DNA from: a virus
Virus record (IMG/VR): IMGVR_UViG_3300049259_000402
Span: 1-49,714 of that record
Length of the DNA: 49,714 nucleotides
Reading direction: 5' to 3' (one strand)
Shown: positions 1 through 49,714 of the stretch, piece by piece
Layout of the letters: every line of letters starts with the position of its first letter
How positions within the stretch are numbered: position 1 is the stretch's first letter
Translations under genes and position numbers: made by a program
The notes under the pieces: generated by a model
The model's input: the letters and a program-made list of their open reading frames with translations, nothing else
What the model was told of the DNA's origin: nothing
Databases searched by the model: none

Positions 1-1089
1 TCAGAGGTGTGGGCCGAGGTTCTTGGCGTGCCAATAGAACTGGTAATCGTCCTCGGCGAACAGCAGGTTCCCGCCTGTCGACTTGACCACCAGACAGAAC
101 CGCACGTTCCCGCCATCCAGGTCGCCCGGGGTCACGTCGAACCCTCGTGCGCCCGGGTGCCCGAGGAAGTTCGACGGCTGGGGGTAGGTGGCCGGGTCGC
201 CCTCAACCGCGCCGATGTTGGTGTCGTTGGCCAGGAATCGCACGATGAGGGAACCGACCACCACGCCGACATCGAAGTAGCTGCTCGAGTTGTTCAGCCG
301 CATCATGTCGTTGTAGTCGATCTCCACCCAGTCGCCCACGGCCGCCGGGATGTCGATCTCGAACGGCCCACCGAGGTGCTGCTGGAGCACCTGCCACGCG
401 CCGCCAGTGTCGGGTGTGGTGACCGTGTCGGACGTGATCCGGGCCTTCCGGATGATCGGCTTGCGAGCTGCGGCGGACACACCGCTGGTCAGCGTGGCCA
501 AGTCGGTGGCCAAATTGGTGACCTGCGACTGGGGGATCGCACCGACGCGCGCCGTGGGCGCGACGGTCGGCGTGCCGCCGATGACGATGGTGGCGTCGGC
601 GGCCGTGACCGAGGTGACCGACCCGGAACCGGCGGCCGGGCGTTGACTGGCGGTGAGGATGCCGTCCGAACCGAGGGTGGCGACACCGTTGGCGGCGCCC
701 AACGCGGACAGCGGCACGTACGAGGTCCCCGCGACCGGCGCGGTGGCGTGTTGCGCGTACAGCGCGGCCAGCGTGGTCGTGGTCGGCGAGGAGGGCAGCG
801 ATGCGTAGAACACGGCAGCCCACACGTCGGTGGCGACGGTGATCCTGTAGGTCCAGCCCTGCGGTACCAGGCCGGGGCTGTCGTTGGCTGGCAGGACCGG
901 CTGGTTGACGAACGCGCCGTTCGCGATGGCGTAGCTGGCGGGTACCTCGTCGCCGAGCACGTAGCCCTCGCTGGTGGCCAGCGCGGCGGGCAGTTCGAAT
1001 GTGGCCGTGCCGGTCGCCAGCTGGCCGGTGGTGGGGTGCTCGACGGTGCCACCGAGGGTGACGGTGGCGACCGATCCAGGCAGCGGCAT
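1..1089 (-). CDS. Minor tail protein / tail fibre (receptor-binding candidate)
   Basis: 362 aa, starting at the ATG at 1089 (MPLPGSVATV) rather than at the upstream in-frame GTG; the stop codon is the first three bases of the window. The N-terminal third is beta-rich. A 'SGSVTSVTAADATIVIGG' segment around residue 185 is the Gly/Ser/Thr-rich linker seen in actinophage tail fibres, and 'VPLSALGAANGVATLGSDG' is likewise a typical fibre motif. The C-terminal 130 residues look like a globular beta domain that could bind a receptor. It is the last gene of the tail/lysis operon, two bases after the holin-like gene. The exact role (fibre or minor tail subunit) is inferred. Confidence 0.8.
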   Translation of the reverse strand: MPLPGSVATVTLGGTVEHPTTGQLATGTATFELPAALATSEGYVLGDEVPASYAIANGAFVNQPVLPANDSPGLVPQGWTYRITVATDVWAAVFYASLPSSPTTTTLAALYAQHATAPVAGTSYVPLSALGAANGVATLGSDGILTASQRPAAGSGSVTSVTAADATIVIGGTPTVAPTARVGAIPQSQVTNLATDLATLTSGVSAAARKPIIRKARITSDTVTTPDTGGAWQVLQQHLGGPFEIDIPAAVGDWVEIDYNDMMRLNNSSSYFDVGVVVGSLIVRFLANDTNIGAVEGDPATYPQPSNFLGHPGARGFDVTPGDLDGGNVRFCLVVKSTGGNLLFAEDDYQFYWHAKNLGPHL

Positions 1090-1091
1090 GG

Positions 1092-1313
1092 TCAGCTCAC
1101 CGGCGGCGTAGGCGTGGGCGCCGACGTCACCGCGGCTGGCTTGGTCGCGTTGGCCGGGAACGCGATGGTCGCGATGGTGCCGCACACCGTGCAGATCCCG
1201 GCGGCCAGCGTGACGTCAACATGCACGTCGAACATCGCGAGGACGGTGACGACAGCGGCCGGGGTGAGCGCGCCCAGCAACGCGCCGAACGCCTTCGAAT
1301 ACCGCTTGATCAT
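1092..1313 (-). CDS. Small holin-like membrane protein
   Basis: 73 aa. The ATG at 1313 overlaps the stop of the endolysin gene (ATGA), so the two are translationally coupled. Two hydrophobic segments at about residues 10-30 and 37-55 are joined by a short polar turn, followed by a Pro/Thr-rich tail. Size, two membrane spans and position directly after the endolysin suggest a holin that permeabilises the cytoplasmic membrane. Short phage membrane proteins cannot be assigned from sequence alone; other candidates lie at 3213-4335. Confidence 0.7.
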   Translation of the reverse strand: MIKRYSKAFGALLGALTPAAVVTVLAMFDVHVDVTLAAGICTVCGTIATIAFPANATKPAAVTSAPTPTPPVS

Positions 1314-2281
1314 GCGGCACCTCCAGCGGCCGGGATTGCGGCCAGACGAGCCTCGAGCGCATCCACGACGGCGTCGCCGATCTGGGCCGGCGTGGCGCCG
1401 ACGGACAATAGCGGCGCGAGCAGCGGGGCCAGTGCGTCGGCGAACAGCTTCGGATCCACACCGCCGGATGTCATGGCCGCCAGCATCTGGGCGACGCCGG
1501 TCTTGGTGTCCGTGTCGGCGGCCTGCACCGCGGCGAGGATCGCTGCGTCGTGTGTGGACAGTGAGCCGTCGAGGGCGGCGAGCTGCTGCTGGACGCCGTA
1601 GACCAACAGGAACAGGTCTCCGGCCGGGTGCTGTCCGCCCACGCCAGGGAGGCAGGACTGGGCGCCGGCGATGACGGTGGCGTCGCTGGGGTTGGCGGGG
1701 TCGAGCATGTCTCCTCCAGGTAGCGGTCTGCGCAGCCAATCTCGATCTACGATTACCCTGCCGACCATCTCGGTGCCGGTGTTGTCCTGCCAGATGTGCG
1801 TCAGCGAGTCCACAAGGGACCGGGCACCGGCCTGCCACTCGATGTCGACGAGCTTGCCCGGCCGCAGCGCGTGGATGAACTCGCTGAAGCCGTAGCCCAT
1901 CGCCCGCCGGCCGGCGGCCCTGATGACCTTGCTGGCTGCGGCCTGGAACGCGATAGCGGTGGAGATCTGGCCGGCGGTCAGATGCTCGTCGGCGGTCACA
2001 CCCAGCGGAATACCGATGGCGCCTTGAGCGGCCATGTCCGCCAGGCCGGCCTGCCCATAGCTGGCGCCAGCGGACGCACCGAGCTCGGCGTCGTGCTGGT
2101 CGTGCTCCACCACGCCGATCGCACCCAGGCCCGCCGCGCGCACCGCCCGGTAGTAAGCCGCAGTGCAGTTCTTCGATAGCCACGGGGTGCCGAAATACAG
2201 CATCAGGCCTTCGAAGCCCTGCGCGCGAGCCTGTTTCGGGTCGGGCTTGCCGGCCGCGTCGCCCCATTTTCCAGCCGTCAT
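1310..2281 (-). CDS. Endolysin-like protein, DUF1906 / glycoside-hydrolase-like domain
   Basis: 323 aa, ATG at 2281. Residues 1-215 resemble the DUF1906 (Rv2525c-like, TIM-barrel glycoside-hydrolase-like) domain found in actinophage lysins: 'KWGDAAGKPDP' at the start, 'LMLYFGTPWLS', 'GLGAIGVVEHDQ', 'MGYGFSEFI' and 'VDIEWQAG'. Residues 225-323 are helical and Ala-rich and may mediate wall targeting or oligomerisation. Adjacent to a holin-like gene, it probably degrades peptidoglycan at lysis. No separate amidase or LysB is visible. The catalytic residue is inferred, not proven. Confidence 0.75.
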   Translation of the reverse strand: MTAGKWGDAAGKPDPKQARAQGFEGLMLYFGTPWLSKNCTAAYYRAVRAAGLGAIGVVEHDQHDAELGASAGASYGQAGLADMAAQGAIGIPLGVTADEHLTAGQISTAIAFQAAASKVIRAAGRRAMGYGFSEFIHALRPGKLVDIEWQAGARSLVDSLTHIWQDNTGTEMVGRVIVDRDWLRRPLPGGDMLDPANPSDATVIAGAQSCLPGVGGQHPAGDLFLLVYGVQQQLAALDGSLSTHDAAILAAVQAADTDTKTGVAQMLAAMTSGGVDPKLFADALAPLLAPLLSVGATPAQIGDAVVDALEARLAAIPAAGGAA

Positions 2282-2448
2282 TGTCGGTTCCGTGCCTTCT
2301 TCGCCGCCGCACGCTTGGCGGCCTGCTTGCGCCGGTCACGCTTGGGCCGGTTCACCACGGGTACGTGTTGGATGGGCGTGTGCTGGTTCCATGACCGCGA
2401 GGGCATTGCGCAGCCGGCGCAGTAGGGATCGGCGCAGTTCTGTATCAC
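2278..2448 (-). CDS. Small basic Cys-containing protein, unknown
   Basis: 56 aa, GTG start at 2448 overlapping the upstream stop (GTGA); its stop overlaps the endolysin ATG. The N-terminus has a compact Cys cluster (CADPYCAGC) that could bind zinc. The C-terminal half is strongly basic (KRDRRKQAAKRAAAKKARNRQ-like), suggesting nucleic-acid binding. No family is recognised. Confidence 0.65.
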   Translation of the reverse strand: MIQNCADPYCAGCAMPSRSWNQHTPIQHVPVVNRPKRDRRKQAAKRAAAKKARNRQ

Positions 2449-2717
2449 GCCGTCACCGCGTGATCGAGCTGCGCGCACGCGTTGGGCGGCAACTGAGCCC
2501 CGTCCTCGTGGTTGACGATCACCGACATGCCGCCGTCGACCTCGATCAGGGCGCCGACCGGCCACGTCGCGGGACGTCGTTGCTCGGGTGGTGTGTCGGC
2601 CTCGTACATCAACCGGTCGAGCGCGTAGTCGATCAGCACAGCGCCGCACCACCCGCACCGCTGCCGCAGTTGCGAACCGACCTGGATATCGGGCCCGGCG
2701 ATGTGGACGGTGCCCAT
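2445..2717 (-). CDS. Small zinc-ribbon-like phage protein, unknown
   Basis: 90 aa, ATG at 2717, coupled to the Acb2/Tad1-like gene at its 5' end and to the 56-aa gene at its 3' end. 'RQRCGWCGAVL' near residue 20 is one CxxC knuckle; only one further Cys occurs near the C-terminus, so a full zinc site is uncertain. The rest is mixed alpha/beta. It resembles small proteins often found near actinophage lysis genes, but I cannot name a function. Confidence 0.65.
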   Translation of the reverse strand: MGTVHIAGPDIQVGSQLRQRCGWCGAVLIDYALDRLMYEADTPPEQRRPATWPVGALIEVDGGMSVIVNHEDGAQLPPNACAQLDHAVTA

Positions 2718-2947
2718 CAGAAGCTCGGTTCCGGCTGGGCGACGGCGCGCACGAACGCACTGAAGCCCTCTTCGAAGTGCGTCCGCGCGATGGCCATCCA
2801 GCGGCGATCGACGCCCTCGACGTCGCCGACGCGGCGCCAGAGTTCACCGACGGTCTTCTCGTATGCCTTGATCTCGTTGATGGCGTCGATCTCGTCCTGC
2901 GAGAGGTCTCGGTAGCCGCTGATCTGCTTGTGCTGGTTGTCGACCAT
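2717..2947 (-). CDS. Acb2/Tad1-type anti-CBASS / anti-Thoeris sponge candidate
   Basis: 76 aa, ATG at 2947. The sequence follows the small helical Acb2/Tad1 (DUF7681-type) pattern: 'ISGYRDLSQDEIDAINEIKA' at residues 9-28, then 'GVDRRWMAIARTHFEEGF' and 'RAVAQPE'. Family members form oligomers that bind cyclic oligonucleotides (Acb2) or gcADPR-type signals (Tad1), blocking CBASS or Thoeris effectors. From memory, phage PaMx33 Acb2 uses Tyr11 and Lys26; here Tyr12 and Lys27 have the same spacing. It lies in the late operon, with ATGA overlap to an 89-aa gene upstream. Which ligand it binds cannot be told from sequence. Confidence 0.8.
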   Translation of the reverse strand: MVDNQHKQISGYRDLSQDEIDAINEIKAYEKTVGELWRRVGDVEGVDRRWMAIARTHFEEGFSAFVRAVAQPEPSF

Positions 2948-3216
2948 CAGGCGTCGTCCTTCACGCGCGGCACCCAGATCGGCCGGACCGTGATGTTGAG
3001 GCTGAGGTTGTGCGCGTCGCTGTGACCGTTGGCATCGACGACGAACATCGGCCTTGGGTGGTCGGGCAGCTCACTTTCCGACACACCGGCCAGGGCCTCG
3101 TTGGCCAGGAACGACTTCACGGCGACGCCGAGGTCGCCGCCATAAGTCAAGTCGATCGCGGCGAGCTGCTTGCGGACCTCGTCGGCCGTGCCGGCGGCCT
3201 GAATCGAGAACGTCAT
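2947..3216 (-). CDS. Hypothetical protein coupled to the Acb2/Tad1-like gene
   Basis: 89 aa. The ATG at 3216 was chosen because an excellent ribosome site (CCAGGAGGAAGC) precedes it. The N-terminal half is helical ('ADEVRKQLAAIDL'); the C-terminal half holds 'MFVVDANGHSDAHNLSLNITVRPIWV', which looks like a short beta sheet with an exposed His/Asp loop. Its stop overlaps the start of the Acb2/Tad1-like gene. I recall similar small proteins next to that gene in other actinophages, so a joint role is possible but unproven. Confidence 0.75.
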   Translation of the reverse strand: MTFSIQAAGTADEVRKQLAAIDLTYGGDLGVAVKSFLANEALAGVSESELPDHPRPMFVVDANGHSDAHNLSLNITVRPIWVPRVKDDA

Positions 3217-3527
3217 GCTTCCTCCTGGTTGGTTGCCAAATCGCGCCCCAGTCGGGCGTCGGCCAAAGAGTTGAGTTGCCATACCACCGCGACGGCAGTA
3301 AAGATCGCTGTCCCGGACGGGGTGAGCAGCGAGTGCGTCAGCAGGTTCACCACCGCGACCATCACATAGACCGACATCACGACCACTCGGGTAGCCACCG
3401 TTCGAACCAGATGTCGGTGGACCGGGCCCGACAATCCGCCGCGCAACCGCACCAACGACACGACCTGGAGCGCGACCGATTCGACGGAGACGAACAGGTA
3501 GAGGATTGCCAGGACGACACCGGTCAT
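3213..3527 (-). CDS. Small integral membrane protein (possible holin-like)
   Basis: 104 aa, ATG at 3527, overlapping neighbours on both sides by ATGA. Hydrophobic segments lie at about residues 3-26, 45-65 and 70-88, with an Arg-rich loop between the first two. It sits in a run of three membrane-protein genes upstream of the endolysin, so a role in lysis (holin, antiholin or pinholin) is possible. No family motif is recognised. Confidence 0.65.
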   Translation of the reverse strand: MTGVVLAILYLFVSVESVALQVVSLVRLRGGLSGPVHRHLVRTVATRVVVMSVYVMVAVVNLLTHSLLTPSGTAIFTAVAVVWQLNSLADARLGRDLATNQEEA

Positions 3528-3919
3528 GGTGGCCGCCGCTCGTTCACCAAGCCTCGCAGTGTCTCGACCTGCTTTTCCAGGACCTCTATCCGATTCCGCA
3601 GTTCTCTGGTCTCCGCAGCATGCTCAGCCTTCAGGGTCCGTATTTCCTGGTTGTGTTCCCGCGTGCGCTCGGTCAGTTGCCGGTCAAGTTCGGCTTCGCG
3701 CCTTTGGATCGCGGAGTTGATGGTCGCGAAGTTTTCTCGGTCAGATTTGCGCTCCGCTTCGGCTGCCGCCTCCTTGGCAGCAGCCGTATCAGCTATCGCC
3801 TTGGCCGCTGCGGCCTGCTCCCGGTGCTTGGCGGTTCGCCTGCGGACGATGTACGAGATAAGCAGTCCCACGAACGGGGCAGCGGCCACCAGCCACGCCG
3901 TGATTTCCCCACCGCTCAC
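3524..3919 (-). CDS. Membrane-anchored coiled-coil protein
   Basis: 131 aa, ATG at 3919. One N-terminal membrane segment (about residues 7-25, 'WLVAAAPFVGLLISYIV') is followed by a long charged helix from about 35 to 125 rich in A/E/K/R heptads, predicted as a coiled coil. This layout resembles small phage lysis-associated proteins, but no diagnostic motif is present. Overlaps at both ends place it in the lysis-region operon. Confidence 0.65.
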   Translation of the reverse strand: MSGGEITAWLVAAAPFVGLLISYIVRRRTAKHREQAAAAKAIADTAAAKEAAAEAERKSDRENFATINSAIQRREAELDRQLTERTREHNQEIRTLKAEHAAETRELRNRIEVLEKQVETLRGLVNERRPP

Positions 3920-4335
3920 GGCACCTCGATCTCATCGAGAGCGTCGTCGAGCGTGATGACGCTGCGGATGATCAGGTACAGGTAGGTCGCCCACGATACG
4001 ACGTTGACAATCGTGGTTCCCTTGTCCGTGATGTAGCGCTCATCGAATGCCAGCCACCAGGCCAGCGCATCGATGCCAGCGGCGAACATCGCCACGGCAA
4101 CTAGCACCTTGCGGCGATACAGCAGGAAAGAAATCGCGGCGAAAGCCGCGCCGGCCATGTAAAAGATGCCCCACACGGTTTGGCCAAAAACGGCCAGCAG
4201 GTTGCCGTATGCTGGGGTATTAGCAAAGCGCTCGGGCTGGAGTATCAGGGTGATGCCGATGGTGAAAAACACGGCCGTCATCCAGAGCATATGCGAGCGA
4301 GCTTCCCCCAGCGACCCGAACCTCCTACGGATCAT
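3916..4335 (-). CDS. Four-helix membrane protein, unknown
   Basis: 139 aa, ATG at 4335. Hydrophobic segments at about residues 16-33, 45-70, 76-95 and 108-128, short charged ends, and an acidic tail ('DDALDEIEVP'). It is the first gene after the tail-tip genes and starts the run of membrane genes leading to the endolysin. It could be a holin or a membrane-modifying protein; I do not recognise the family. Confidence 0.65.
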   Translation of the reverse strand: MIRRRFGSLGEARSHMLWMTAVFFTIGITLILQPERFANTPAYGNLLAVFGQTVWGIFYMAGAAFAAISFLLYRRKVLVAVAMFAAGIDALAWWLAFDERYITDKGTTIVNVVSWATYLYLIIRSVITLDDALDEIEVP

Positions 4336-4363
4336 GTGGACTCTCTTTCGTGAAATCGACTTG

Positions 4364-4960
4364 TCAGCCGAAGCTGGGCGGTGTCGGGCCCAGGCTCAGG
4401 CCCAGCAGTTGCACGGACGCGTTCGTCGACGCGCCGGCGGCGGTCTGGCTCGCGGTGATGACGATGTCCAGGCTGGAAAGGCCGACAGAGGAGTGCAGAT
4501 CGAACACATGTTTCCCGTTCACGGCTGCGCCGGTGACGTTCCAGGTGCCGATTGACACCAACGGCGATCCCACCTTGACCTGGAAGGTGTAGACGGCGTT
4601 GTCGCCGACGCTGGCGTCACCCCAGATTCCCTCGACGTACACCGCCGGGTTGAGGACCTCGCCGATACGGCCCTGCCACAGGGTTTTCTCCGTGGCCAGC
4701 TGCGCGTTGGTGATCTGCGCGGAGGACTGCGGTACACCGGAGGCGAAGTTGCTTGGCAGGAACGTCGGGTACATCGGGATGTGCGCGTAGGGCAATGCCA
4801 ATCCCGCTACGGGATCCAGGGCGAACACGGTGACGCCGTTGGCGTCGGCGAGCGAGCGGGTGCCGCTGCGGTTGGACAGGGTCTTGATAAGGCGGCGCAG
4901 CTCGGCGAACTCGGCGGCGATGGCGTCGGTGCCCGTGGTGTAGTTCGGTGTGTTAGGCAC
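4364..4960 (-). CDS. Minor tail protein
   Basis: 198 aa, GTG start at 4960 overlapping the 3' end of the upstream tail gene by 8 bases. After a helical N-terminus ('DAIAAEFAELRRLIKTLSNRSG', residues 12-33, likely a trimerising or docking helix) the protein is beta-rich, with 'YVEGIWGDASVGDNAVYTF' and a C-terminal beta-sandwich-like region. This architecture is usual for actinophage tail-tip subunits. The function is inferred from position and composition. Confidence 0.75.
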   Translation of the reverse strand: MPNTPNYTTGTDAIAAEFAELRRLIKTLSNRSGTRSLADANGVTVFALDPVAGLALPYAHIPMYPTFLPSNFASGVPQSSAQITNAQLATEKTLWQGRIGEVLNPAVYVEGIWGDASVGDNAVYTFQVKVGSPLVSIGTWNVTGAAVNGKHVFDLHSSVGLSSLDIVITASQTAAGASTNASVQLLGLSLGPTPPSFG

Positions 4961-6086
4961 TGGTCATCGCCGCGACGATGTGCTTGTAGGTGTCGGCTGT
5001 GTCGCCGTTGGACAGGCCCAGGATGCGGCGGGAGTAGACGCCGTCGCGGATGAGCCGGTGGCCCTGCAGGTTGTACTGCGCGGTGCCGCCCGGGTCGAAC
5101 GAGCCGAACGGCACGTCCTCGTCGTCCATCAGCGCGGTCACGTCCCACAGCACTTGGCGCTGAATGTTCAGGGCCTCCGCTCCCGCGGCCGCGCCCTGCA
5201 AGGTGGCCTGGTCAGCGCTGGCCGACGTGCTGATGCTGACCGACTCCAGCTTCGGGAATCCGACGGTATCCAGGCTGGTATTCGTGGTCGAGGCCCACAT
5301 CGTGTCGTAGCTGGACCCGTTGCCCTTCTGGTAGGTAGTGCGCGCGCGGGCCGATCCGTTGCGGGTGCGCAGGATCTTGAGGATGTTGCCCGGGTAATCG
5401 AATACCAGCGGGTTACCCGCGTTGGCCAGGCTCGGCGTGCCGATCACCGCGAGGTGATGGATGTGGCTGTCGTCGTACCGATAGGGCTTGAGCAGCACAT
5501 CGGGGCCGGCGGCGTCCTGGGTCAGCGCGTAGAGGAAGTCGCCGGCGGTGTTGAAGTTGTAGCCGAACTCTGAGCGGGTCGTCGACCCGGCGATAGCCAC
5601 CGGGAGGTCCAGCGGGACCGGGTTGCGGGTCTTCGCGTTGGCCAGCACCGCGACCGCGATGCCCTGCATGCTGGACGTATAAGTGCTGTCCGCGCCCGCA
5701 CCCAACCCGACGGACACACCGTTCCACGTGGACGGGACCTGCAAGGTGGCCTTGAGCACCGGCCACAGGCCGGTACCGCCGATCTGCAGCGTGGGCGGGT
5801 CCTTGTCCTGCTCGGCGTCGGACAGGATTGGGCCGGCCTGGCACACGTAGTCGCTGGGCGACCCGTCGCCGCGGCACACGGCGATCGAGAATCGCCAGTC
5901 GTCGGTGAGGTCGGCCAGGTCGTCGCGGGACATGCCGTCCTCGGCGCCTAGCGGTGTCTCGATCGTCCACGAGCCGTCGGCGTTGTAGACCTGCTGCCAG
6001 GTGGGCGTGGTGGCCAGCGGGATCGTCCCGACCACCTCGCCGGTGACCGTGAGGTACACCAGGGCGTAGTAGCCACGCGTCGTCAT
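4953..6086 (-). CDS. Minor tail protein, ReqiPepy6 Gp37-like
   Basis: 377 aa, ATG at 6086. It resembles the tail-tip family called siphovirus ReqiPepy6 Gp37-like: 'VYNADGSWTIETPLGAEDG', 'LTDDWRFSIAVCRGDG', 'GPILSDAEQ' and 'LQIGGTGLWPVLKATLQ'. Such proteins sit after Dit in gram-positive siphophages and form part of the tail tip or hub. It overlaps the preceding tail gene by 4 bases (ATGA). No hydrolase motif is visible. Confidence 0.8.
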   Translation of the reverse strand: MTTRGYYALVYLTVTGEVVGTIPLATTPTWQQVYNADGSWTIETPLGAEDGMSRDDLADLTDDWRFSIAVCRGDGSPSDYVCQAGPILSDAEQDKDPPTLQIGGTGLWPVLKATLQVPSTWNGVSVGLGAGADSTYTSSMQGIAVAVLANAKTRNPVPLDLPVAIAGSTTRSEFGYNFNTAGDFLYALTQDAAGPDVLLKPYRYDDSHIHHLAVIGTPSLANAGNPLVFDYPGNILKILRTRNGSARARTTYQKGNGSSYDTMWASTTNTSLDTVGFPKLESVSISTSASADQATLQGAAAGAEALNIQRQVLWDVTALMDDEDVPFGSFDPGGTAQYNLQGHRLIRDGVYSRRILGLSNGDTADTYKHIVAAMTSA

Positions 6087-7258
6087 GCCCGGACCCAGGT
6101 GAAACTCACTGCGGTGCGACCGGCCAGCGCGGCGTTGGGGTGGTCGATCGACCCGGTCGCGGAGGAGATGGCGTTGATGACCACCGAGGCGCCGGCCGCG
6201 AACCGCTGCTCCGCGGAGCAGTTCATGTCCACGATCGCGCCGGCCGCCGGCGAGGGGATGTCGTCCGTGCCGTAGACCTGTGTCAGTGCGGCATCACTGA
6301 TCTGTAGGAACCTGGTGATCGACGCGGTCGTGTCGCCGATGCGGGTGTCTGCGGTGATACGCCACAGACCGCCGCGTTGGAACGTGAACGTGGTGTTGTT
6401 GGTGCCGCTGGCCACGACGTCCGGGCAGGTGTAGTCCGCGACGGGGAACTGCACGAGGTTGCTCCCGGCGGCTAGCACCTGGGTGCCTGAACTGGCGGCC
6501 CGGTACCGGGCCTGCCCGGCGCCGGCGCCGGTCAACGCCAGGGTGTCCCAGACGCCGGTGACGACGTTCCAGCGGTCGATCGTGCCCTGTGTGGCGACCA
6601 CGCTGGTATCGCGCAACTCTCCGAGCATGAACCCTGGATCGGTGACAGCGTCGCCGGGTAGCAGGGGTCGGATCGCGCCGCGTGGCGCCGTGGAGCGGCG
6701 TTTGTCGGCGAACTCGCCGCCGGTGAGCACGGTTTGCCCTGCGGCCACCGTGATCTGCGCGATGGGAATGGAGTTCGACGGCGCAGCGGGAGGCGACGGC
6801 GAGCCTGCCGCCACACCGGTGGTGACGAGGTATTGGGTGAGGCTGGTGCCGCCGTTGTCGCCCTTCGCGCCGTCGAACACCTGCAGATCGATGCGGTCGA
6901 TCCGCGGGTTGATGCCGTTCGCGGTCGTCAGCGTTACCACACCGGTGCTGTTCACGGTGACCAGATAGCTGCCGACCAGGGTGGTGCGTTCGACCACGGC
7001 CGCACCCAGGAACAGGTTGACCGTCAGACCTGAGCCCGAGGCGCTGGCCCGCATCGCCTGCGGCACACCGGATGCGAAACCGTCGCCGCCGACGAGGACA
7101 CCGGGCCGCGCGGTGTTGAGCTGGTTGTTGCCGGTGGCGCCCTCCATGAGGAGCGCCAGGTCGTAGTAACGCACCCGCTGGGCGTTGTCCTGCGATTGGA
7201 TGGTGTGGGTGCCGCCGGCGTTGCCGCTGGACCCACCGATGGCGTAGGTCGTCGCCAT
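6083..7258 (-). CDS. Minor tail protein (tail-tip / baseplate)
   Basis: 391 aa, ATG at 7258 with a strong ribosome site (GGAGGAGATCCT). The N-terminal half ('VLVGGDGFASGVPQAMRAS', 'GLTVNLFLGAAVVERT', 'NPRIDRIDLQVFDG') is typical of actinophage tail-tip proteins that resemble upper-baseplate subunits; residues 270-391 form a beta-rich C-terminal domain ('FTFQRGGLWRITADTRIG') that could be TNF-like. It lies between Dit and the Gp37-like gene. A host-contact role is inferred. Confidence 0.78.
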   Translation of the reverse strand: MATTYAIGGSSGNAGGTHTIQSQDNAQRVRYYDLALLMEGATGNNQLNTARPGVLVGGDGFASGVPQAMRASASGSGLTVNLFLGAAVVERTTLVGSYLVTVNSTGVVTLTTANGINPRIDRIDLQVFDGAKGDNGGTSLTQYLVTTGVAAGSPSPPAAPSNSIPIAQITVAAGQTVLTGGEFADKRRSTAPRGAIRPLLPGDAVTDPGFMLGELRDTSVVATQGTIDRWNVVTGVWDTLALTGAGAGQARYRAASSGTQVLAAGSNLVQFPVADYTCPDVVASGTNNTTFTFQRGGLWRITADTRIGDTTASITRFLQISDAALTQVYGTDDIPSPAAGAIVDMNCSAEQRFAAGASVVINAISSATGSIDHPNAALAGRTAVSFTWVRA

Positions 7259-7271
7259 AGGATCTCCTCCG

Positions 7272-8171
7272 TCAGAAGGCGGCGGACAGCGAGGCCGTCA
7301 GCACTGGGGTCATGGATGCCGAGACACCCTGGAACTGGCACGTGATCGATTGGCCGGGCGGCACCCGGAACCATTGACGGCTGGTGAGGAACCGGCCGTA
7401 GGACACGCCGTTCAACAAGACGCTGCGGTGGCGCGGATTCGTGTCGATGACGAGCGTGTCACCGGTCTGCAGCACGTTGGTGTAGGCCAGTTGTTGGGCC
7501 GGGCTGATCTGCGCGACGATCGGGTTGGTGAGGGTCGCACCGTCGGTCGGGCCGGAGATCGTGAACTTCGGCCACGCGTCGGCGACGCCGGGGTTGGTCA
7601 GTTGGATCAGCCCGGTGCTGGTTACGAGCCCGTAGTCGACACCGCCCGCGCCGGCCCCGGTGTAGTCGACGCCACCGGCGCCGGCCCCGGTGTAGTCGAC
7701 GCCGCCTGACGCGGCCGGCAGCCCGGTGCTCTGGGAGGGCAGCGCGAGATACCGATACGGGTCCGGCGCAATGAGCACCAGCTGCCATTCCAACCCCGTC
7801 GGCGACGTGCGATCCAATTGGCAGCCGTTGCCCAACTTCACCCGCGCGGTCAGGACACGCGAGTTCTCCTGCACCGACAACGTATCCAGGCCTCCGTACA
7901 GCAGGGAGGTGAACTGGTCGGCGGCCGCGTCCGGGGCCCCCGGGCTGGGTGCCTTGGCGTACCCGGGGATCGTGATGACCCGCTCGCCGCGTGTCGTGGG
8001 GGTGGAGTAGCTGCCGTCCTCGGTGGGGATGTCGATGTCCGATCCCCGCACCGGCAGCGGGTCGAACCAGCCCGTCGAGGACGGGCTGACCCACATCACC
8101 CCGTTGACGTCGACCACGTTGGCCGACCAGGCGCCGATCGTCCAGATCGGAGGCTGCAGCAGTGTCGTCAT
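7272..8171 (-). CDS. Distal tail protein (Dit-like)
   Basis: 299 aa, ATG at 8171, ATGA-coupled to the tape measure. Position directly after the tape measure and features such as 'DIPTEDGSYSTPTTRGERVITI', 'LEWQLVLIAPDPYRY', 'NPGVADAWPKFTISGP' and 'VIDTNPRHRSVLLNG' match the Siphoviridae distal-tail family that links the tube to the tip complex. Residues 156-180 contain a ten-residue unit GGVDYTGAGA repeated in tandem, encoded by a 30-bp DNA repeat. Confidence 0.82.
   Translation of the reverse strand: MTTLLQPPIWTIGAWSANVVDVNGVMWVSPSSTGWFDPLPVRGSDIDIPTEDGSYSTPTTRGERVITIPGYAKAPSPGAPDAAADQFTSLLYGGLDTLSVQENSRVLTARVKLGNGCQLDRTSPTGLEWQLVLIAPDPYRYLALPSQSTGLPAASGGVDYTGAGAGGVDYTGAGAGGVDYGLVTSTGLIQLTNPGVADAWPKFTISGPTDGATLTNPIVAQISPAQQLAYTNVLQTGDTLVIDTNPRHRSVLLNGVSYGRFLTSRQWFRVPPGQSITCQFQGVSASMTPVLTASLSAAF
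7632..7706 (-). repeat. In-frame 30-bp tandem repeat inside the Dit-like gene
   Basis: The unit encoding GGVDYTGAGA occurs twice and a further half-unit encodes GGVDYG, about 2.5 copies. Copies are nearly identical at the DNA level, so the array can vary in length by slippage without breaking the frame. It lies in the linker between the N- and C-terminal halves of the distal tail protein. Confidence 0.8.
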
Positions 8172-11100
8172 CGGCGTGTGTTCCGCAACTGCCAGGCGGT
8201 GCGGCTGGCGACGACCTCGGCGACGGTCATGACGTCCTCGTTGCGGGACACCGTGTTGTAGTTGTTGATCGTCGGTCCGGCCGCCGGGGCGTGGCCGCTG
8301 GTCTGGGGTGCCCCGTTGATGCCGCCGGCGGCGTAGGCCCGCACCAGCGCGTAACCCATGCGGCGGGCGGTTTCCAGCAAGATGCTCTGCGACCTCGATG
8401 ATGCGTTCACCGGAATGTAGGCCTCGTCGTCGATGACCCGGTCACCGATGATCCGCAGGGCGTTGGGCGGGACGATCTGGGCGTAGCCGCCGCGCATCGG
8501 GCGCATCCCGCCCGCCGCCCACGCCTCGACCAGCCCGCCGGCGGCCTGCGGGACCTGCACGCCGTGGGTGCTGACCGCGTTGATACGCACGGTGCCGCTA
8601 CTGGCGTTGATCCGGGCGATCAAGGTGTTCAGGGCGCCCTGCGCGGCGTCGATGTTGGCGCCGATCGCCACTTGCCCGTTGGGCAGGTGGATCACCTGGA
8701 ACCCGATGGCCTGCAACGCCGCGGCGGCGGCATCGGTGATGGAGTGGACGGTGACCGATTTCTGGTCCGGCGTGGCGTGGATCTTGTCGATGACGCCCTG
8801 GACTTCCTGCTGCACCTGCGGCGCCGTGCCCTGGGTGGTCACCAGCGTGGCGACCTGCGAGGGAATCAAGCCGTACTTGTCGGCCAACGTGTTCGCCGCG
8901 GTCGCGCTGATACCCATCGACTCGGCGATCGCGATGAACTGCTGCCGGGTCGCCGCGGTCGCTTCCTCGACCTTCTTGAAACTCTGCGGCAAGCTGTCGC
9001 CGGCCGCCTGGCTGACCTTGAACGTCTGGGTCGCGACATCGGCCATGTCGCCACTCAGGTCGTGCACAAAGGACTGGAGTTGCTGTCCTGCCTTGGTGCT
9101 GGTGTCGATCGAGCCGTTCAGCCCGACCAGTGACTGGCCGAGCTGGTCGATCGAGACACCGGCCTGCTGCGCGGAATCCTTGAGGGTCTGCTGGAAATCG
9201 CTGAACGCTCCGTTCAGGGTGGATTGCGCCGCGTCCAGATCGATCTGCCCGCCGTGTAGCAAATCCAGGGCACTCTTGAGGGCAGAGGTTTTGTCCGCCG
9301 CGGAGGACGTCGAATCGGCCAGCGTGTTCATCGACGTGATCAGCGAGGACGCCGTGGTGGTCGAGGTGCCCATGGCCTGCGCGGTCTGGTCGACCTGCCG
9401 CTGGGCCTCCGAAAGGTTGTCGTTCGCGCCGCCGATCGCGCCGCCCAAGGTGCTGAAATCAGTAGAGCCGCGTTGGACGTCGTCCAGCAGCTGGCCCAGC
9501 ATGGCCTCGGTTTCGGGGGATTGCTGCCCGACGTCGGCGATGGCGTTCTTGACCTTGCTCAGTGCCGCCTGGTTCCCGACGGCGACTTCGTTGAAATCGT
9601 TGAACGTCAGGCCTGCTTCGTGCAGGGCGCCGGACATCTGGTCGATGTTCGTCGAGTTGTGCAGCCATTCGCTCGACTGGTCCCGCAGCTGCCGGTTGAC
9701 CGAGGTCATGACATCCGCGTTGCCGGTTTGCGCGTCCAGCAACGCGCTCAGGGCGATGTGCTGCCGGTCGGCCGCGTCGGACACACCGTTCGAGGCGTCC
9801 TTTTGGGCCTGCTGCTGCCGGGTCTGCTCGGTGATCGCCCCGGTGGTTTTGTCCAGGGTGCCGGCGAGGTCGGATACGGCCTGCTTGTGCTCGGCCGCCG
9901 CCTTCGCGGCGGCCTCCTGGTTCGACGCGAGCAGCCCCAACCCGAGGGACGCGCCGGCCATGGCGATCCCGAACGGGCCGCCCAGCGCCGAGACCAGACC
10001 GCCAGCGGCGAGCTTCAAGCCGGTGCCGGCTGCGGCGGCGGTGCCGGCCAACCCGCCGAACCGTTGCGCGCCTTCGGAGGCGGTGGTGAAGCTGTCCTTC
10101 ATCGCCGACAGCGCCGGGGACCGCTCGACCAGTGTGCTGAGCGCGGCGGTGAACGTGCTGATCGGCTGTCCGGCCGCGGCCGCGCCGTCCCGGATCGCGA
10201 TGGTCTGGTCGCGGAAGCTGCGGGCCGCGGCGACTGCGGGCACCGTGCTGGTGTTGAACGCGTTGACCGCCGACCCGAGGTGACTGACCGACTGGCCGGT
10301 CGCCTCGGCCAGGGACCGCTGCACAGCCATCTCACCGGCGAACTGACGCACGGTGCTCGTCGCGGTGCTTACCACCGACGCTGCCGCGCGCACGGGCGCG
10401 GTCAGCCCGGACACCGCCCGACCGAACAGGCCGGTCTTCGCCGACCCGTCACCGGCCGCGGACCCGGTGCCGCTGAACGCGTTCTTCAGTGACCCGAGGA
10501 TCGACGGGCCGACCTTGAGCGCCACCAGGGCTACTGCCGCGGACTGGACCGGGCCGGGTAGTTCAGCGAACACGTGGACCGCTTCGGCGACCACGTCGGC
10601 GACCGGTTTCACCGCGCCGGCCGCGACCTTCGCCGCACCGCCCACAATGGTCAGGGCCGTCCCGGTGGCGCGCAGGGGGCCACCGGCCTTGTCGGCGCCC
10701 GCGATGACCTCACCGACCGCCACAGCGACCGGGTGCAGGTCGCGGGCGACGGTGGTGTAGGCCTGCCCGACCTGCCGGGTGTAGGACGCCACGATCGCGA
10801 CGCCCTCGATGGTGGCGTCCCGCAGCCCGGACACGATTGGCTTGACGAGCTGCTCGGCGCCGGTGGCGACCTCGGCGGCCTTGTCCCGCAGCGCGGCCGC
10901 GACCGCCGGCCCGTAGGTCTGGGCGGCCTTGATCCCGGTCTGCAGGACCTTGATCGTGGTGTTGCCGGCGCTGGCCAGCAGCCCGGTCGCCGACCGCGTG
11001 GCCCTTTCCAGAACGGGCGAGATCTGCTGGAACACCTCCAGCTGCACGGTTTGCAGCTGCGATTGGAAGCCCTGTACCGCGCCGCCCAGGCCCTTCATCT

Positions 11101-12076
11101 GGGCGGCCGCGACGTCCGCGGCGCCGCCGGAACGGCCCACTGCGGTGGACATCTTGGTCCAGTCCGCCGCGGTATCCTGCGCGGCGACGCCGGCCAGGCG
11201 CACCGCGTCGGTGCCGAACACGGTCGCGGTGGCCTGCGCGAACTGCTGCTGGGTCATGCGGGCCGACGCGTCGTGCAGCTGGCTCATCAGGCTCTGCAGC
11301 CCGACGAACTTCCCGGTCGCGTCGAACACCTTCAAACCGAGGTCCTGGATCGCAGCAGCCGCTGGCTTGGTCGGCGCGGCCAGCTGGGTGAGCGCGGTCT
11401 TGAGCAGCGTGCCGGCGTCGGAGCCCTTGATGCCGGCGTTGGCCAGCAAACCCAGCGCGGTCGAGGTGTCCTCGATGGACACCCCGAACTGGTGGGCCAC
11501 GGCACCGACCTGGGACAGGGCCTGGGCGAAGTCGGTGATGTCGCCTGAGGACTGGTTCGCGGTGTTGGCCAGCACATCCGCGACGTGGCCGGCCGAGCTG
11601 GCCGACAAGCCGAAGGAATTGAGGGCGTTGGCCTGGATCTCGGCGGCCTGTGCGCCGGAGATCTGCGCGGCCGCCGCGAGCTGCAGGGTGCCCTTCGCAG
11701 CCTGCATGGCCTGGTCGACACTCAGGCCGCCCTTGGCCAGTTCCAGCATGGCCTGCGCCGCGTCGGCCGCCGAGGTCGCTGGCAGGGACAGGTCGTTGCC
11801 CAGCGCCACCGCGCGGGCCGATACCGCGGCCATCTGCTCGCCGGTGGCGCCGGAGACGGCCTGGATCTGGTTGAGGTTGTTCTGGTAGTCGATGCCCAGG
11901 GTGATGGCTTGCTTCAGGCCGACCGCGGCGATACCGACGCCGGCGGCGATCGCGCCACCGATCGCCAGGCCGGCCTTGCTGATGCCCGACGTGCTGGCCC
12001 GTAGTCCCGCGGTGACCTTGCCTTCGAACCCGGTGAGGTCCGGATTGATCAGGATGTCGATTTTCCCACCGGGCAT
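8168..12076 (-). CDS. Tail tape measure protein
   Basis: 1302 aa from the ATG at 12076; an in-frame GTG at 12082 overlaps the ribosome site GGGAGGT, so the ATG is preferred. The N-terminal 400 residues are of TP901-type tape-measure style ('YQNNLNQIQAVSGATGEQ', 'QAMLELAKGGLSVDQAM', 'NALNSFGLSASSAGHVAD'). There are hydrophobic stretches near residues 36-55 and 700-720, long Ala/Gln-rich helices, and a C-terminal region with 'GAPQTSGHAPAAGPTINNYNT'. It sets tail length, roughly 195 nm at 0.15 nm per residue. It follows the tail chaperones and precedes Dit, the canonical order. Confidence 0.95.
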   Translation of the reverse strand: MPGGKIDILINPDLTGFEGKVTAGLRASTSGISKAGLAIGGAIAAGVGIAAVGLKQAITLGIDYQNNLNQIQAVSGATGEQMAAVSARAVALGNDLSLPATSAADAAQAMLELAKGGLSVDQAMQAAKGTLQLAAAAQISGAQAAEIQANALNSFGLSASSAGHVADVLANTANQSSGDITDFAQALSQVGAVAHQFGVSIEDTSTALGLLANAGIKGSDAGTLLKTALTQLAAPTKPAAAAIQDLGLKVFDATGKFVGLQSLMSQLHDASARMTQQQFAQATATVFGTDAVRLAGVAAQDTAADWTKMSTAVGRSGGAADVAAAQMKGLGGAVQGFQSQLQTVQLEVFQQISPVLERATRSATGLLASAGNTTIKVLQTGIKAAQTYGPAVAAALRDKAAEVATGAEQLVKPIVSGLRDATIEGVAIVASYTRQVGQAYTTVARDLHPVAVAVGEVIAGADKAGGPLRATGTALTIVGGAAKVAAGAVKPVADVVAEAVHVFAELPGPVQSAAVALVALKVGPSILGSLKNAFSGTGSAAGDGSAKTGLFGRAVSGLTAPVRAAASVVSTATSTVRQFAGEMAVQRSLAEATGQSVSHLGSAVNAFNTSTVPAVAAARSFRDQTIAIRDGAAAAGQPISTFTAALSTLVERSPALSAMKDSFTTASEGAQRFGGLAGTAAAAGTGLKLAAGGLVSALGGPFGIAMAGASLGLGLLASNQEAAAKAAAEHKQAVSDLAGTLDKTTGAITEQTRQQQAQKDASNGVSDAADRQHIALSALLDAQTGNADVMTSVNRQLRDQSSEWLHNSTNIDQMSGALHEAGLTFNDFNEVAVGNQAALSKVKNAIADVGQQSPETEAMLGQLLDDVQRGSTDFSTLGGAIGGANDNLSEAQRQVDQTAQAMGTSTTTASSLITSMNTLADSTSSAADKTSALKSALDLLHGGQIDLDAAQSTLNGAFSDFQQTLKDSAQQAGVSIDQLGQSLVGLNGSIDTSTKAGQQLQSFVHDLSGDMADVATQTFKVSQAAGDSLPQSFKKVEEATAATRQQFIAIAESMGISATAANTLADKYGLIPSQVATLVTTQGTAPQVQQEVQGVIDKIHATPDQKSVTVHSITDAAAAALQAIGFQVIHLPNGQVAIGANIDAAQGALNTLIARINASSGTVRINAVSTHGVQVPQAAGGLVEAWAAGGMRPMRGGYAQIVPPNALRIIGDRVIDDEAYIPVNASSRSQSILLETARRMGYALVRAYAAGGINGAPQTSGHAPAAGPTINNYNTVSRNEDVMTVAEVVASRTAWQLRNTRR

Positions 12077-12100
12077 GCTCACCTCCCAGCAGGTGTCAGG

Positions 12101-12930
12101 TCAGATCACGCCGACGACGGTTTTCCAGTCGTCGAGCGAGGCGGGTTGGTCGGGCAGGCTGTGTCGTGTCACCGCGGCGGTGTAGTCGGCGATGCGCTGC
12201 TGCGCCAGCAGCGGTGGCCGGTGCGCGATCGGCGGGATCAGCGGATGCCGGGGCGGGGTGATCCCGGCCCGTTTCCGGGCGGCGCGTTCCCGGGCGGCGT
12301 CGCGGTCGTTCGGGTCGATGATGCGGTCGGCCCAGGACAGTTCCAGGGCGTAGGCCTGCTGTTCCAGCAGTAGCGCCGTGTTCTCCTCGTGCGGGCCCCA
12401 GTGGTCGCGCAGGCCGTTGACCAGCGCCAGGAAATCGGCGACCGGGTAACGGAAGAAGGCCTCACGCAGATCGAGGTGGTAGGTGCGGCGGAAGGCGGCG
12501 AGTGTGGCGTCCCAGCGGGGACCGAGGATGTCGATCAGGACGCCGAGTCTTCCCCCGCCGCGTCCTCCCAGTCATCGTCCAGCACGATCCCCACGAAACA
12601 GCCGCTGGCGTTGAGGAAACCGCGCATCGCGGCCCGCAAATGCCGTTTGGGCAGCCCGTCGAGCACTGTATCCAGCCGTTCAGCGTCTTCACCGATCAGC
12701 AGTCGCAGGCCGTTGAGGAAGTTCTCGGCGCTGGAGTTCCCGGCGACCAAGTCCTGGTACTGCACGACCTCGGCGGCGGTGAGGTCGGTGCGCACCGAGT
12801 AGGTGTATCCGGCGAGCTTGACCTTCGCCGGCTTCAGCTGCCGTTGCGCCAGCAGCGCGTCCAGGTCGAGCAGGTTCTGGTCGGCCAGGTCCGGTTCGGA
12901 CCGTTGGGTGTTCGTGTGGGCGCCTGACAT
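12101..12930 (-). CDS. Tail assembly chaperone, long frameshifted form (gpGT-like)
   Basis: The first frame (12535-12930) is joined to a second frame ending with the TGA at 12101-12103. The downstream part, about 149 codons beginning 'RLGVLIDILGPRWDATLAAF' and ending 'DDWKTVVGVI', is open in the -1 frame relative to the first. I see no ATG or GTG that could start it near its beginning. A G5AA run (GGGGGAA, 12550-12556) lies 13 bases before the first-frame stop, where zero-frame codons are GGG GAA. In siphophages a -1 shift here makes the fused chaperone that loads the tape measure. The downstream frame carries 'FRRTYHLDLREAFFRYPVAD' and 'LRDHWGPHEENTALLLEQQ', matching the T-like half. Confidence 0.8.
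12535..12930 (-). CDS. Tail assembly chaperone, short form (gpG-like)
   Basis: 131 aa, ATG at 12930 (MSGAHTNTQ). The alternative ATG ten codons upstream (12960) lies inside the end of the major tail gene. Sequence such as 'LKPAKVKLAGYTYSVRTD', 'AEVVQYQDLVAGNSSAENF' and 'GLRLLIGEDAERLDTVLDGL' fits the first tail-assembly chaperone of actinobacterial siphophages. It lies between major tail protein and tape measure. It ends in an acidic tail (DDDWEDAAGEDSAS), inside which the -1 frameshift would occur. Confidence 0.85.
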   Translation of the reverse strand: MSGAHTNTQRSEPDLADQNLLDLDALLAQRQLKPAKVKLAGYTYSVRTDLTAAEVVQYQDLVAGNSSAENFLNGLRLLIGEDAERLDTVLDGLPKRHLRAAMRGFLNASGCFVGIVLDDDWEDAAGEDSAS

Positions 12931-12941
12931 TGGTCGGTCTC

Positions 12942-13523: not shown

Positions 13524-13553
13524 GCATCCTCCTGCTGGAGTGGTGAAATTTCC

Positions 13554-13601
13554 TGGGCGCCAGTGGACAGAGCCGGGCCCGGGCCGCCGGTCAGGCGCCC
13601 A
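13554..13601 (-). promoter_or_regulatory. Inverted repeat upstream of the major tail gene
   Basis: In the 97-base gap between the tail terminator and the major tail gene, TGGGCGCC (13554-13561) pairs with GGCGCCCA (13594-13601). The loop contains a further self-complementary GCCGGGCCCGGG core. It could be an attenuator, an RNA-processing site or part of a late promoter that raises tail-tube output. No T run follows the stem. Confidence 0.4.
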
Positions 13602-13620
13602 CCGTGCGGCGACCCGGGGT

Positions 13621-14462: not shown

Positions 14463-14464
14463 GC

Positions 14465-15795: not shown

Positions 15796-15806
15796 CGGGT
15801 TCCTCC

Positions 15807-16832: not shown

Positions 16833-16847
16833 TGTGGACCGACCTCC

Positions 16848-17234: not shown

Positions 17235-17243
17235 GGTGGACTC

Positions 17244-17915: not shown

Positions 17916-17954
17916 CGCGGGGTACCTCCATGATCGATGACCTGGGCGTCGCGC

Positions 17955-47898: not shown

Positions 47899-48402
47899 AT
47901 GACGGTGAATGCCTCCCACCGTCGCTCGCTAGTCGACCTCGGCCGCGCTGTACGCGCGGCCCGCGAGCGACGCCACAAATCCATAGCCGAGCTGGCCACT
48001 GGCCGCTGCTCGCCCAACACCTGGACGAAGGTCGAGCGCGGCTTTTACGTCCACCCCGCCACCTACGACAAGATCGCCGAGGCGCTACGGGTACCGGCCG
48101 AACTGGTCGCCGCAGCGGCCAGCTCGCCCGATCGTCTCACGGAACTGGTCGAGCTGCTCGACGCCGGCGCGAACTACTTCCCCGAACCCAACCGCCTCGA
48201 CGACCGGGCGCTGTGGGACGCCTACAACGCCATCCAGGCCGAGCTCTACGCCCGCTTCTGGCTCTACCACGACGAGGCCACCGGCCCCCGCAGTCCCGGA
48301 CGTCCGCGTATTCGAGGCGCGGTGAACGAACCTGCCGCCAGCTTAGATGCGGCGGGCAACCGCACAGCAACAAGACAGGAGAGACCCCATGGGGTGGGCT
48401 GA
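47899..48402 (+). CDS. XRE-family repressor candidate upstream of the integrase
   Basis: 167 aa, ATG at 47899. HTH at about residues 12-65 ('LGRAVRAARERRHKSIAELATGRCSPNTWTKVERGFYVHPATYDKI'), then helical 'LTELVELLDAGANYFPEPNR' and 'WDAYNAIQAELYARFWLYHDE'. The last 35 residues are of low complexity. No peptidase motif is present. Its end overlaps the integrase start by 14 bases, so both may be expressed together. The natural candidate for the immunity repressor. Confidence 0.75.
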   Translation: MTVNASHRRSLVDLGRAVRAARERRHKSIAELATGRCSPNTWTKVERGFYVHPATYDKIAEALRVPAELVAAAASSPDRLTELVELLDAGANYFPEPNRLDDRALWDAYNAIQAELYARFWLYHDEATGPRSPGRPRIRGAVNEPAASLDAAGNRTATRQERPHGVG

Positions 48403-49714
48403 ACCACGCGGCCCCGGCCAGTTCCGTGCCGCGTACCGCGCCACTGTCGACGGCAAATCGAAGCAGCTCTACGTCAAGGACGAGGACACGGGCGAGACCG
48501 TGCTGTTCACGTCCCCAGCGAAAGCGAAACGCGCCGCGGCCGTCGCCGAGGACAAAGAGCGCAATCGCGCGAAGACGCGGAAGGCGACACGCGCCACCGG
48601 GACGTTCCGCGACTGGGTCGACGAACTGGCCGCGATCCAGGCGACGCCCCAAAGTACGCAGTCCGCCCTGCGCGTGCACGTTCTCCCTCAATGGGGCGAT
48701 GTGCCGCTGCTCGATATCGACGACCGTGAGGACGTCCAGGAATGGGTCGAGGCGCTCAGCGCGACACGGGTCGTGAAGCACACGGTCGACGGCTACGTCG
48801 AGCGCGAACGCGCCTTGTCCGCGAGCACTGTGCAGCGCATCTTCTACACCTTTTCTGGCTACATGAAGAAGGCAGTGAAGCGCAATCGGATCCCGTTCAC
48901 GCCGTGCCAATATATTGACCTGCCGACACAGGACCTGCCCGACGAGCGGTTCCTCACCGTCGCGGAGTTCAACAAGATCCACGCGACGGCACCCGACGAG
49001 GACATGAGAATATTCTGCGACCTCGGCGTAGGAACCGGTTTCCGGTTCGGTGAAATGGTCGGCCTGCACCGGCACAGGATCGACACAGAGCACAAGTCAA
49101 TCGTGGTTCAGGAGACATGGTCGAACGCAACCGGCATCATGAAGGGCTATCCCAAGAGCGGCAAGCGTCGGGGCGTGCCCATTGATGATGAGCTGAGCCG
49201 GAAACTCAAAGATTATATGCGGACACATCCCGCGGTGCCATGCCGGGAACGGCACGTGGACTCGCGCGGGAACACGGTCGCGTGCAACAGTTCCCTGCTG
49301 TTCAGTCGACGCGATGGGCACGCCTGGACTCACGCGCGCACGCAGCAGGCGTGGCGGCCGATGCTGCAGGCCGCGGGCGTGGGGCACGTCCGGATCCACG
49401 ACATGCGACATACCTACGCGAGCTGGCTGATTCAGCGTGGAATTAGCAAAGACGAGCTGTGTCAATTGCTGGGGCATTACTCGGTGATCGTCACGGAACG
49501 TTACGCCCACCTGGCCGGCGCGCACTGGGGCCGGGTCCGCGCGGCGCTGGGCAACACCGAGTGGGTGCCGCCGACGCCCGAGCCGCCCAGCGGCCTGTGG
49601 GTTCCCGCGGGATCCGTCGCGTCGGAGTCTGCTCCTCAGCTGCTCCCCGCGACAGCGGACAAGGGCGGCGCGAAGATCATTCAGTTTCCGCCTCCCCACA
49701 GGTCAGCAGGCTAG
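48389..49714 (+). CDS. int: Tyrosine-family site-specific integrase
   Basis: 441 aa, ATG at 48389 with AGGAGAG upstream; the stop codon is the last three bases of the window. N-terminal arm-binding region, a core-binding helical domain (about 70-185) and a catalytic domain with Arg219 ('GTGFRFGEM'), Lys256 ('YPKSGKR'), His337-x-x-Arg340 ('IHDMRHTYAS'), His363 ('LGHYS') and nucleophile Tyr372 ('ERYAHL'). All key residues are intact. A 55-residue Pro-rich tail follows. It should integrate the phage at an attB site that is not visible here. Confidence 0.95.
   Translation: MGWAEPRGPGQFRAAYRATVDGKSKQLYVKDEDTGETVLFTSPAKAKRAAAVAEDKERNRAKTRKATRATGTFRDWVDELAAIQATPQSTQSALRVHVLPQWGDVPLLDIDDREDVQEWVEALSATRVVKHTVDGYVERERALSASTVQRIFYTFSGYMKKAVKRNRIPFTPCQYIDLPTQDLPDERFLTVAEFNKIHATAPDEDMRIFCDLGVGTGFRFGEMVGLHRHRIDTEHKSIVVQETWSNATGIMKGYPKSGKRRGVPIDDELSRKLKDYMRTHPAVPCRERHVDSRGNTVACNSSLLFSRRDGHAWTHARTQQAWRPMLQAAGVGHVRIHDMRHTYASWLIQRGISKDELCQLLGHYSVIVTERYAHLAGAHWGRVRAALGNTEWVPPTPEPPSGLWVPAGSVASESAPQLLPATADKGGAKIIQFPPPHRSAG

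What the first reader, a model, noticed from the sequence alone, without database searches (positions are those of the whole stretch)
2717..2947. Acb2/Tad1-type anti-defence protein in the lysis-region operon of an actinophage
The 76-aa protein carries the short helical pattern of cyclic-nucleotide sponges, with Tyr12 and Lys27 spaced as Tyr11/Lys26 in PaMx33 Acb2 (from memory). It implies that the host range includes strains with CBASS or Thoeris-type immunity. Its late-operon location is unexpected for a protein needed early in infection; it may travel in the virion, act against lysogen immunity, or have a second promoter.
Basis: partly seen in the sequence, partly recalled or inferred. Interest (0 to 1): 0.75.

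Follow-up and report, generated by a model that had tools for sequence, protein, structure and literature searches.

The report
Acb2 immune-signal sponge in actinophage
This small gene in a virus of actinobacteria encodes a protein of a known family that soaks up the alarm molecules bacteria use against viruses; its place among late genes is common for the family rather than strange.

Summary
Window 2717-2947 (minus strand) encodes a 76-aa protein scoring 61 bits against Pfam Acb2_Tad1_hairpin (cut-off 27). It matches the solved Acb2 chain 8h2j at E 7e-14, and the first nine Foldseek hits of its AlphaFold model are all Acb2 or T4 Vs.4. Tyr12, Lys27 and Thr56 align with Acb2 pocket residues. 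It is an Acb2, not a Tad1: no beta-sheet domain.

The claim that a late-operon position is unexpected fails. Of 43 acb2 neighbourhood groups, 31 could be classed, 24 of them as packaging, structural or lysis surroundings; so were 12 of 14 annotated phage records read. A random-position control gave 5 late of 11 classed, so an excess is suggestive only (p 0.03-0.07).

Acb2 in actinophages is already in print (Statler; Xandras and BigBubba). Most likely this is a compact sponge, made with the lysis genes, that removes CBASS cyclic oligonucleotides late in infection. Binding, hexamer and timing were not tested. New member of a known kind.

The parts
2717..2947 (-). acb2: 76-aa compact Acb2-type cyclic-oligonucleotide sponge
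   Evidence: PF24729 E 9.9e-17; 8h2j E 7.2e-14; Foldseek to 8h2x/8h2j/7uq2 prob 1.00
2945..2949 (-). TGATG overlap: stop of the upstream ORF and ATG of acb2 share a base (translational coupling inferred)
   Evidence: sequence
2715..2719 (-). TGATG overlap: stop of acb2 and ATG of the next ORF share a base
   Evidence: sequence
2445..2717 (-). 90-aa protein with a CxxC pair (CGWC), no family above cut-off, directly downstream in the operon
2947..3282 (-). ORF directly upstream, no family above cut-off; the real start may be the internal ATG near 3216
3213..3527 (-). two hydrophobic helices by a Kyte-Doolittle scan; holin candidate only
3524..3919 (-). one N-terminal hydrophobic helix, then a charged, coiled-coil-like part
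3916..4335 (-). three hydrophobic helices by the same scan; holin candidate only
1310..2281 (-). lysin candidate, Rv2525c-like glycoside-hydrolase-like domain (27.3 bits, cut-off 27.2)
8168..12082 (-). tail tape measure protein, upstream in the same direction
   Evidence: PHROG 10780 E 1.3e-131
48347..49714 (+). tyrosine integrase (suggests a temperate phage)

Best explanation
The gene encodes a compact Acb2. By homology, six copies assemble into a hexamer that binds cyclic di- and possibly trinucleotides made by host CBASS cyclases and holds them without degrading them, so that the CBASS effector is not switched on before the phage finishes. It lies in a tightly overlapped run of genes between the tail genes and the lysin candidate, so it is most likely made with structural and lysis proteins, the stage at which capsid proteins or the prohead protease are reported to trigger CBASS. 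Shown: family membership by sequence and predicted monomer fold, conserved pocket residues, gene overlaps, late position. Inferred: hexamer, ligand binding, timing of expression, benefit to the phage.
For: PF24729 61.3 bits against cut-off 27. phmmer to 8h2j E 7.2e-14; profile of ten sequences (window and nine relatives) to 8h2j E 6.3e-25 and to T4 Vs.4 7uq2 E 7e-7. AlphaFold pLDDT 84.7, helices 17-41 and 48-70; the first nine Foldseek PDB rows are all Acb2 or Vs.4 with probability 1.00 (E 4e-4 to 4e-2), the tenth has E 2.0 and probability 0.44. Tyr12 aligns with Tyr11 of p26 and, allowing one residue of offset in chain 7uq2 (my inference), with T4 Tyr8, whose Y8A form is called binding-deficient; Thr56 aligns likewise with T4 Thr68, where T68M is said to decrease affinity (PMC12657230, passages; alignment). 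Tyr12 and Lys27 are invariant in 10 of 10 aligned sequences, Thr56 in 8 of 10. TGATG overlaps on both sides. CBASS activation late in infection for two Bacillus phages, and capsid proteins implicated as triggers: PMC11153139, passages; prohead protease interacting with a CBASS sensor: PMC12409349, passage.
Against: No binding, oligomer or infection data for this protein. It lacks the 19-residue stretch between the helices that p26 has, so pocket details, above all for trinucleotides, may differ; Foldseek rmsd is 4.1-5.0. NCBIfam has no match. The host and its defence systems are unknown. An internal promoter giving earlier expression was not looked for.
Confidence: 0.86

Rival explanations
1. 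It is a Tad1-type sponge that mainly removes Thoeris signals (gcADPR).
For: Pfam joins the helical hairpins of Acb2 and Tad1 in one family.
Against: Tad1 has an N-terminal antiparallel beta-sheet and two long helices (PMC12043709, passage); this protein has 16 residues before its first helix and no strand of 3 or more residues, and none of the 50 of 53 Foldseek rows shown is a Tad1.
Confidence: 0.05
2. It is an Acb2-fold protein that has lost sponge function and is kept for another role in the late operon, such as assembly or lysis timing.
For: The position next to lysis genes; many relatives lie inside head and tail modules; the region between the helices is shortened.
Against: Tyr12, Lys27 and Thr56 are kept; the gene occurs in 43 different neighbourhood groups among 90 loci, as expected of a cargo gene and not of a structural part; the one relative of the lysin found lies in a locus without an acb2 match within about 6 kb.
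Confidence: 0.07
3. It protects the prophage state or travels in the virion.
For: The phage has an integrase.
Against: Not tested here: no promoter scan and no virion data. [quoted passage not shown]
Confidence: 0.04

Closest known systems
Acb2 of Pseudomonas phages, p26, PDB 8h2j/8h2x
   Same: N-terminal DNQHK(Q/K)I.GYRDLS motif, two helices, pocket tyrosine and lysine, AI(A/G)(R/K)T and R-A-(V/I)-AQP motifs
   Different: this protein is 76 aa and lacks a 19-residue stretch between the helices; Foldseek identity 34-37%
T4 Vs.4 (Acb2), PDB 7uq2
   Same: same predicted fold, equivalent tyrosine and threonine
   Different: 24-25% identity over the fold; the T4 gene is recalled as lying outside the late genes, which was not examined here
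Acb2 of actinophages: Statler gp57 (PMC13348362, part 1 of 2 of the text); Xandras gp101 and BigBubba gp102 (PMC11953737, abstract and passages)
   Same: predicted Acb2 in actinobacterial phages
   Different: not compared by sequence (the Statler record is not held); from their numbers the Xandras/BigBubba genes seem to lie beyond the structural and lysis genes (inferred), so these are probably not late
Tad1
   Same: shares the Pfam hairpin family
   Different: Tad1 adds a beta-sheet domain (PMC12043709, passage) for which there is no room here

Membership tests
Acb2 | score above the curated Pfam cut-off for the Acb2/Tad1 hairpin | tested here: met
   61.3 bits against 27
Acb2 | monomer of two long antiparallel helices matching solved Acb2 | tested here: met
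   model helices 17-41, 48-70; 8h2x_B E 3.9e-4, TM 0.73/0.62, rmsd 4.8. The short N-terminal helix of solved Acb2 is not in the model (residues 1-5 below pLDDT 50)
   Tyr12 and Lys27 in the alignments; invariant in 10 of 10 sequences
Acb2 | homohexamer | not tested
   only the monomer was predicted
Acb2 | binds cyclic oligonucleotides and inhibits CBASS | not testable with these tools
   needs biochemistry and infection tests
Tad1 | N-terminal antiparallel beta-sheet domain before the hairpin | tested here: not met
   76 aa, first helix at residue 17, no strand of 3 or more residues
Tad1 | binds gcADPR | not testable with these tools
   needs biochemistry

The most novel reading that the evidence does not exclude
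Compact Acb2 sponges (about 74-77 aa) may be a predominantly late class of anti-defence gene, repeatedly inserted as a cargo gene between packaging, capsid, tail and lysis genes so that the sponge is made together with the late proteins that trigger CBASS; a broken copy (L013) would then be a mark of selection by sponge-sensing defences such as Panoptes.
Probability: 0.3. Interest if true: 0.5.

Novelty: new member of a known kind. Interest (0 to 1): 0.3.

Why it matters
It adds a short, divergent Acb2 in an actinophage; for mycobacteriophages the role of such sponges is said to be unknown (PMC11953737, passage). It also corrects the idea that a sponge must be an early gene: family members are often found among late genes, which fits late triggering of CBASS and can be tested by timing expression.

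Tried and rejected
Megablast of window 1-20000 against phages: no match (the tool may leave out very near records). Relatives of the lysin candidate or of the membrane protein 3916-4335 in phage records: none. Relatives of tail gene 4953-6086 in viral contigs: none confirmed. One relative of the lysin in viral contigs (L014, 64%), with no acb2 match in that locus. Tad1 identity: rejected, no beta-sheet domain. NCBIfam: no match for acb2. The idea that TGATG overlaps are general in the family was tested and dropped: among 36 groups with a readable start (one locus each), TGATG was at the start in 2 and at the end in 3. Prevalence in bacterial genomes was not estimated; the genome scan used strict peptide patterns and confirmed 5 loci. 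Host CBASS or Thoeris content: not searched, host unknown. Promoters: not scanned. Papers: no paper on a late-operon bias of Acb2 was seen in the listings, the two searches aimed at it (the library lacks most subscription papers); one search gave no paper stating the Tyr11/Lys26 pocket, and finds for these residues in two papers gave none.

Full report
What is there. The window is a 49,714-base virus record. On its minus strand, 2717-2947 encodes a 76-aa protein beginning MVDNQHKQISGYRDLSQ, with the third-position G+C bias of its neighbours. It is the only PF24729 match in the record. Among 1,974 phage records with a terminase relative, Mycobacterium, Gordonia, Streptomyces and Arthrobacter phages dominate; the best is Streptomyces phage Kromp at 56%. 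A tyrosine integrase lies at 48347-49714. This is therefore probably a temperate actinophage; its host is unknown.

Identity. Pfam Acb2_Tad1_hairpin: E 9.9e-17, 61.3 bits, cut-off 27, residues 11-71 to profile 1-58 of 58. PHROGs 717 and 29522, both of unknown function, match at 8e-18 and 1e-16. Sequence search of the PDB: 8h2j p26, E 7.2e-14. A profile of ten sequences, the window and nine of the twelve relatives (identical L006 and L007 and broken L013 left out), reaches 8h2j at 6.3e-25 and T4 Vs.4 at 7e-7. AlphaFold on that alignment gives pLDDT 84.7 and two helices. In Foldseek against the PDB the first nine rows are Acb2 or Vs.4 with probability 1.00 and E 4e-4 to 4e-2; two rows are below 0.001; the tenth row has E 2.0 and probability 0.44. 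TM-scores are moderate (0.66-0.73 by query) and rmsd 4.1-5.0, in keeping with the 19 residues missing between the helices.

Pocket. That these line the p26 pocket is recalled; I did not see the original paper. For T4 Acb2, passages of PMC12657230 call Y8A binding-deficient and say that T68M decreases affinity. In the alignment, allowing one residue of offset in chain 7uq2 (my inference), these are Tyr12 and Thr56 here. Tyr12 and Lys27 are invariant in 10 of 10 aligned sequences; Thr56 is kept in 8 of 10.

Operon. acb2 is joined to its neighbours by TGATG overlaps at both ends (2945-2949 and 2715-2719). Upstream on the same strand are an uncharacterised ORF, three proteins with 2, 1 and 3 hydrophobic helices, and tail genes including the tape measure; downstream are a CxxC protein and a Rv2525c-like lysin candidate just above cut-off. 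The lysis-region reading is thus likely; holins are candidates only.

Is a late location unusual? Two acb2 scans of viral contigs (the second kept the best 80 of 95), one of genome contigs and four annotated phage records gave 90 loci with an acb2 match, one broken (L013) and one partial (L092). Clustering by similarity of neighbouring proteins gave 43 groups. For most groups I picked one large same-strand neighbour by hand, up to a few kilobases away and before seeing its family, and scanned it against PHROGs at E limits of 1e-8 to 1e-5. For L002, L003, L005, L011 and L013 several neighbours had been scanned earlier, and four groups rest on record annotation. Result: 24 groups late (TerL, portal, major head protein, connector, tape measure, tail, lysis); 7 not late (DNA polymerase, replication protein, Cas4 exonuclease, Sak4, transposase, two endonucleases); 12 unclassed, of which 7 were scanned without a functional hit (L003, L031, L032, L055, L059, L082, L090) and 5 were not scanned (L038, L073, L080, L081, L089). 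The weakest late call is L044, whose best hit is an Ig-domain family and whose tail hits are at 5e-7 and 3e-6. In 14 annotated phage records read, chosen by hand for diversity from the hit lists place acb2 among head, tail, packaging or lysis genes and 2 (Aeromonas phage MQM1, Pseudomonas phage 119X) among replication genes. Four of these 14 are also among the 43 groups; overlap of the other ten was not checked. Two of the 12 are loose: Ebordelon (terminase about 1.1 kb away) and VP882 (a methyltransferase lies between acb2 and the tail gene). Against the trend: T4-like records in the hit lists were not read and would probably add non-late cases, and the mycobacteriophage genes in print seem to lie outside the late genes.

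Control. In 20 of the same records, chosen by hand among those of 35 kb or more, I drew a random position, fetched it and scanned the nearest ORF of 200 aa or more at E 1e-6: 5 late, 6 not late, 8 unclassed, 1 without such an ORF. Fisher tests: 24 of 31 against 5 of 11, p = 0.066; for those 20 records, 14 late of 16 classed (4 unclassed; five classed through another member of their group) against 5 of 11, p = 0.033; the annotated set, 12 of 14 against one half, p = 0.013. The picking rule for acb2 was looser than that for the control. So the position is clearly not rare, and an excess is suggested but not established. The sample is also biased to relatives of this compact form.

Why late can make sense. 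Passages of PMC11153139 suggest CBASS cyclase activation only late in infection for two Bacillus phages and cite capsid proteins as implicated triggers in Pseudomonas; a passage of PMC12409349 cites a prohead protease that interacts with a CBASS sensor. A sponge made with these proteins would arrive with the signal. There is also a cost: passages of PMC12657230 and PMC12657218 show that Acb2 activates the Panoptes system and that 14 of 15 T4 escapers sequenced had mutations only in acb2.

Movement. Of 13 window proteins from 1-12082 compared with 101 loci, apart from acb2 only a few matched. L014 has the lysin relative (64%) and a short tape-measure match. L019, whose Acb2 is the nearest intact relative (64%), has distant relatives (26-27%) of two tail proteins, but there acb2 lies before the tape measure gene and not after the tail genes as in the window. 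L011 and L044 each have one weak match; L020 (Acb2 63%) has none. L014 has no acb2 match. Locus L013 carries a broken close relative: 39 bases around the start are 97% identical and 77 at the end are 83% identical in DNA, with an internal loss that shifts the frame, beside a glycosyl hydrolase 25 lysin. An assembly error in L013 cannot be excluded. acb2 thus looks like a mobile cargo gene.

Novelty. Acb2 is an established family, and Acb2 in actinophages is in print: Statler (PMC13348362, part 1 of 2) and cluster E mycobacteriophages (PMC11953737, abstract and passages). This is a new member, in the short form commonest in my sample (74-77 aa in 27 of 36 groups with a readable start). The open point of some interest is whether compact Acb2 genes form a late-expressed class.

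Noticed in passing
L013:4996-5112: Broken acb2, close in sequence to the window's gene, with an internal frameshifting loss, beside a GH25 lysin in a 40-kb virus record; possible loss under selection, or an assembly error.
   Followed up: partly
L015:5980-6675 (PP003914.1): A GenBank record annotates an 'Rz-like spanin' on the opposite strand over an Acb2 homologue (match 6001-6225, plus strand); the Acb2 frame itself is not annotated.
   Followed up: no
L018:5004-5234 (MT104468.1) and several other Pseudomonas records: Acb2 homologues are annotated as 'NAD/FAD-utilizing enzyme', which looks like a propagated misannotation.
   Followed up: no
window 1310-2281: Lysin candidate with a Rv2525c-like glycoside-hydrolase-like domain; no relative found by tblastn in 50,697 phage records at E 1e-5.
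   Followed up: partly
window 25141-25215: Single tRNA-Met gene (anticodon CAT) on the minus strand.
   Followed up: no
L011:5001-5252 and L012:5001-5252: Acb2 relatives with an 8-residue insert and Met in place of the pocket Thr; in L011 the gene follows TerL. They may bind different ligands.
   Followed up: no
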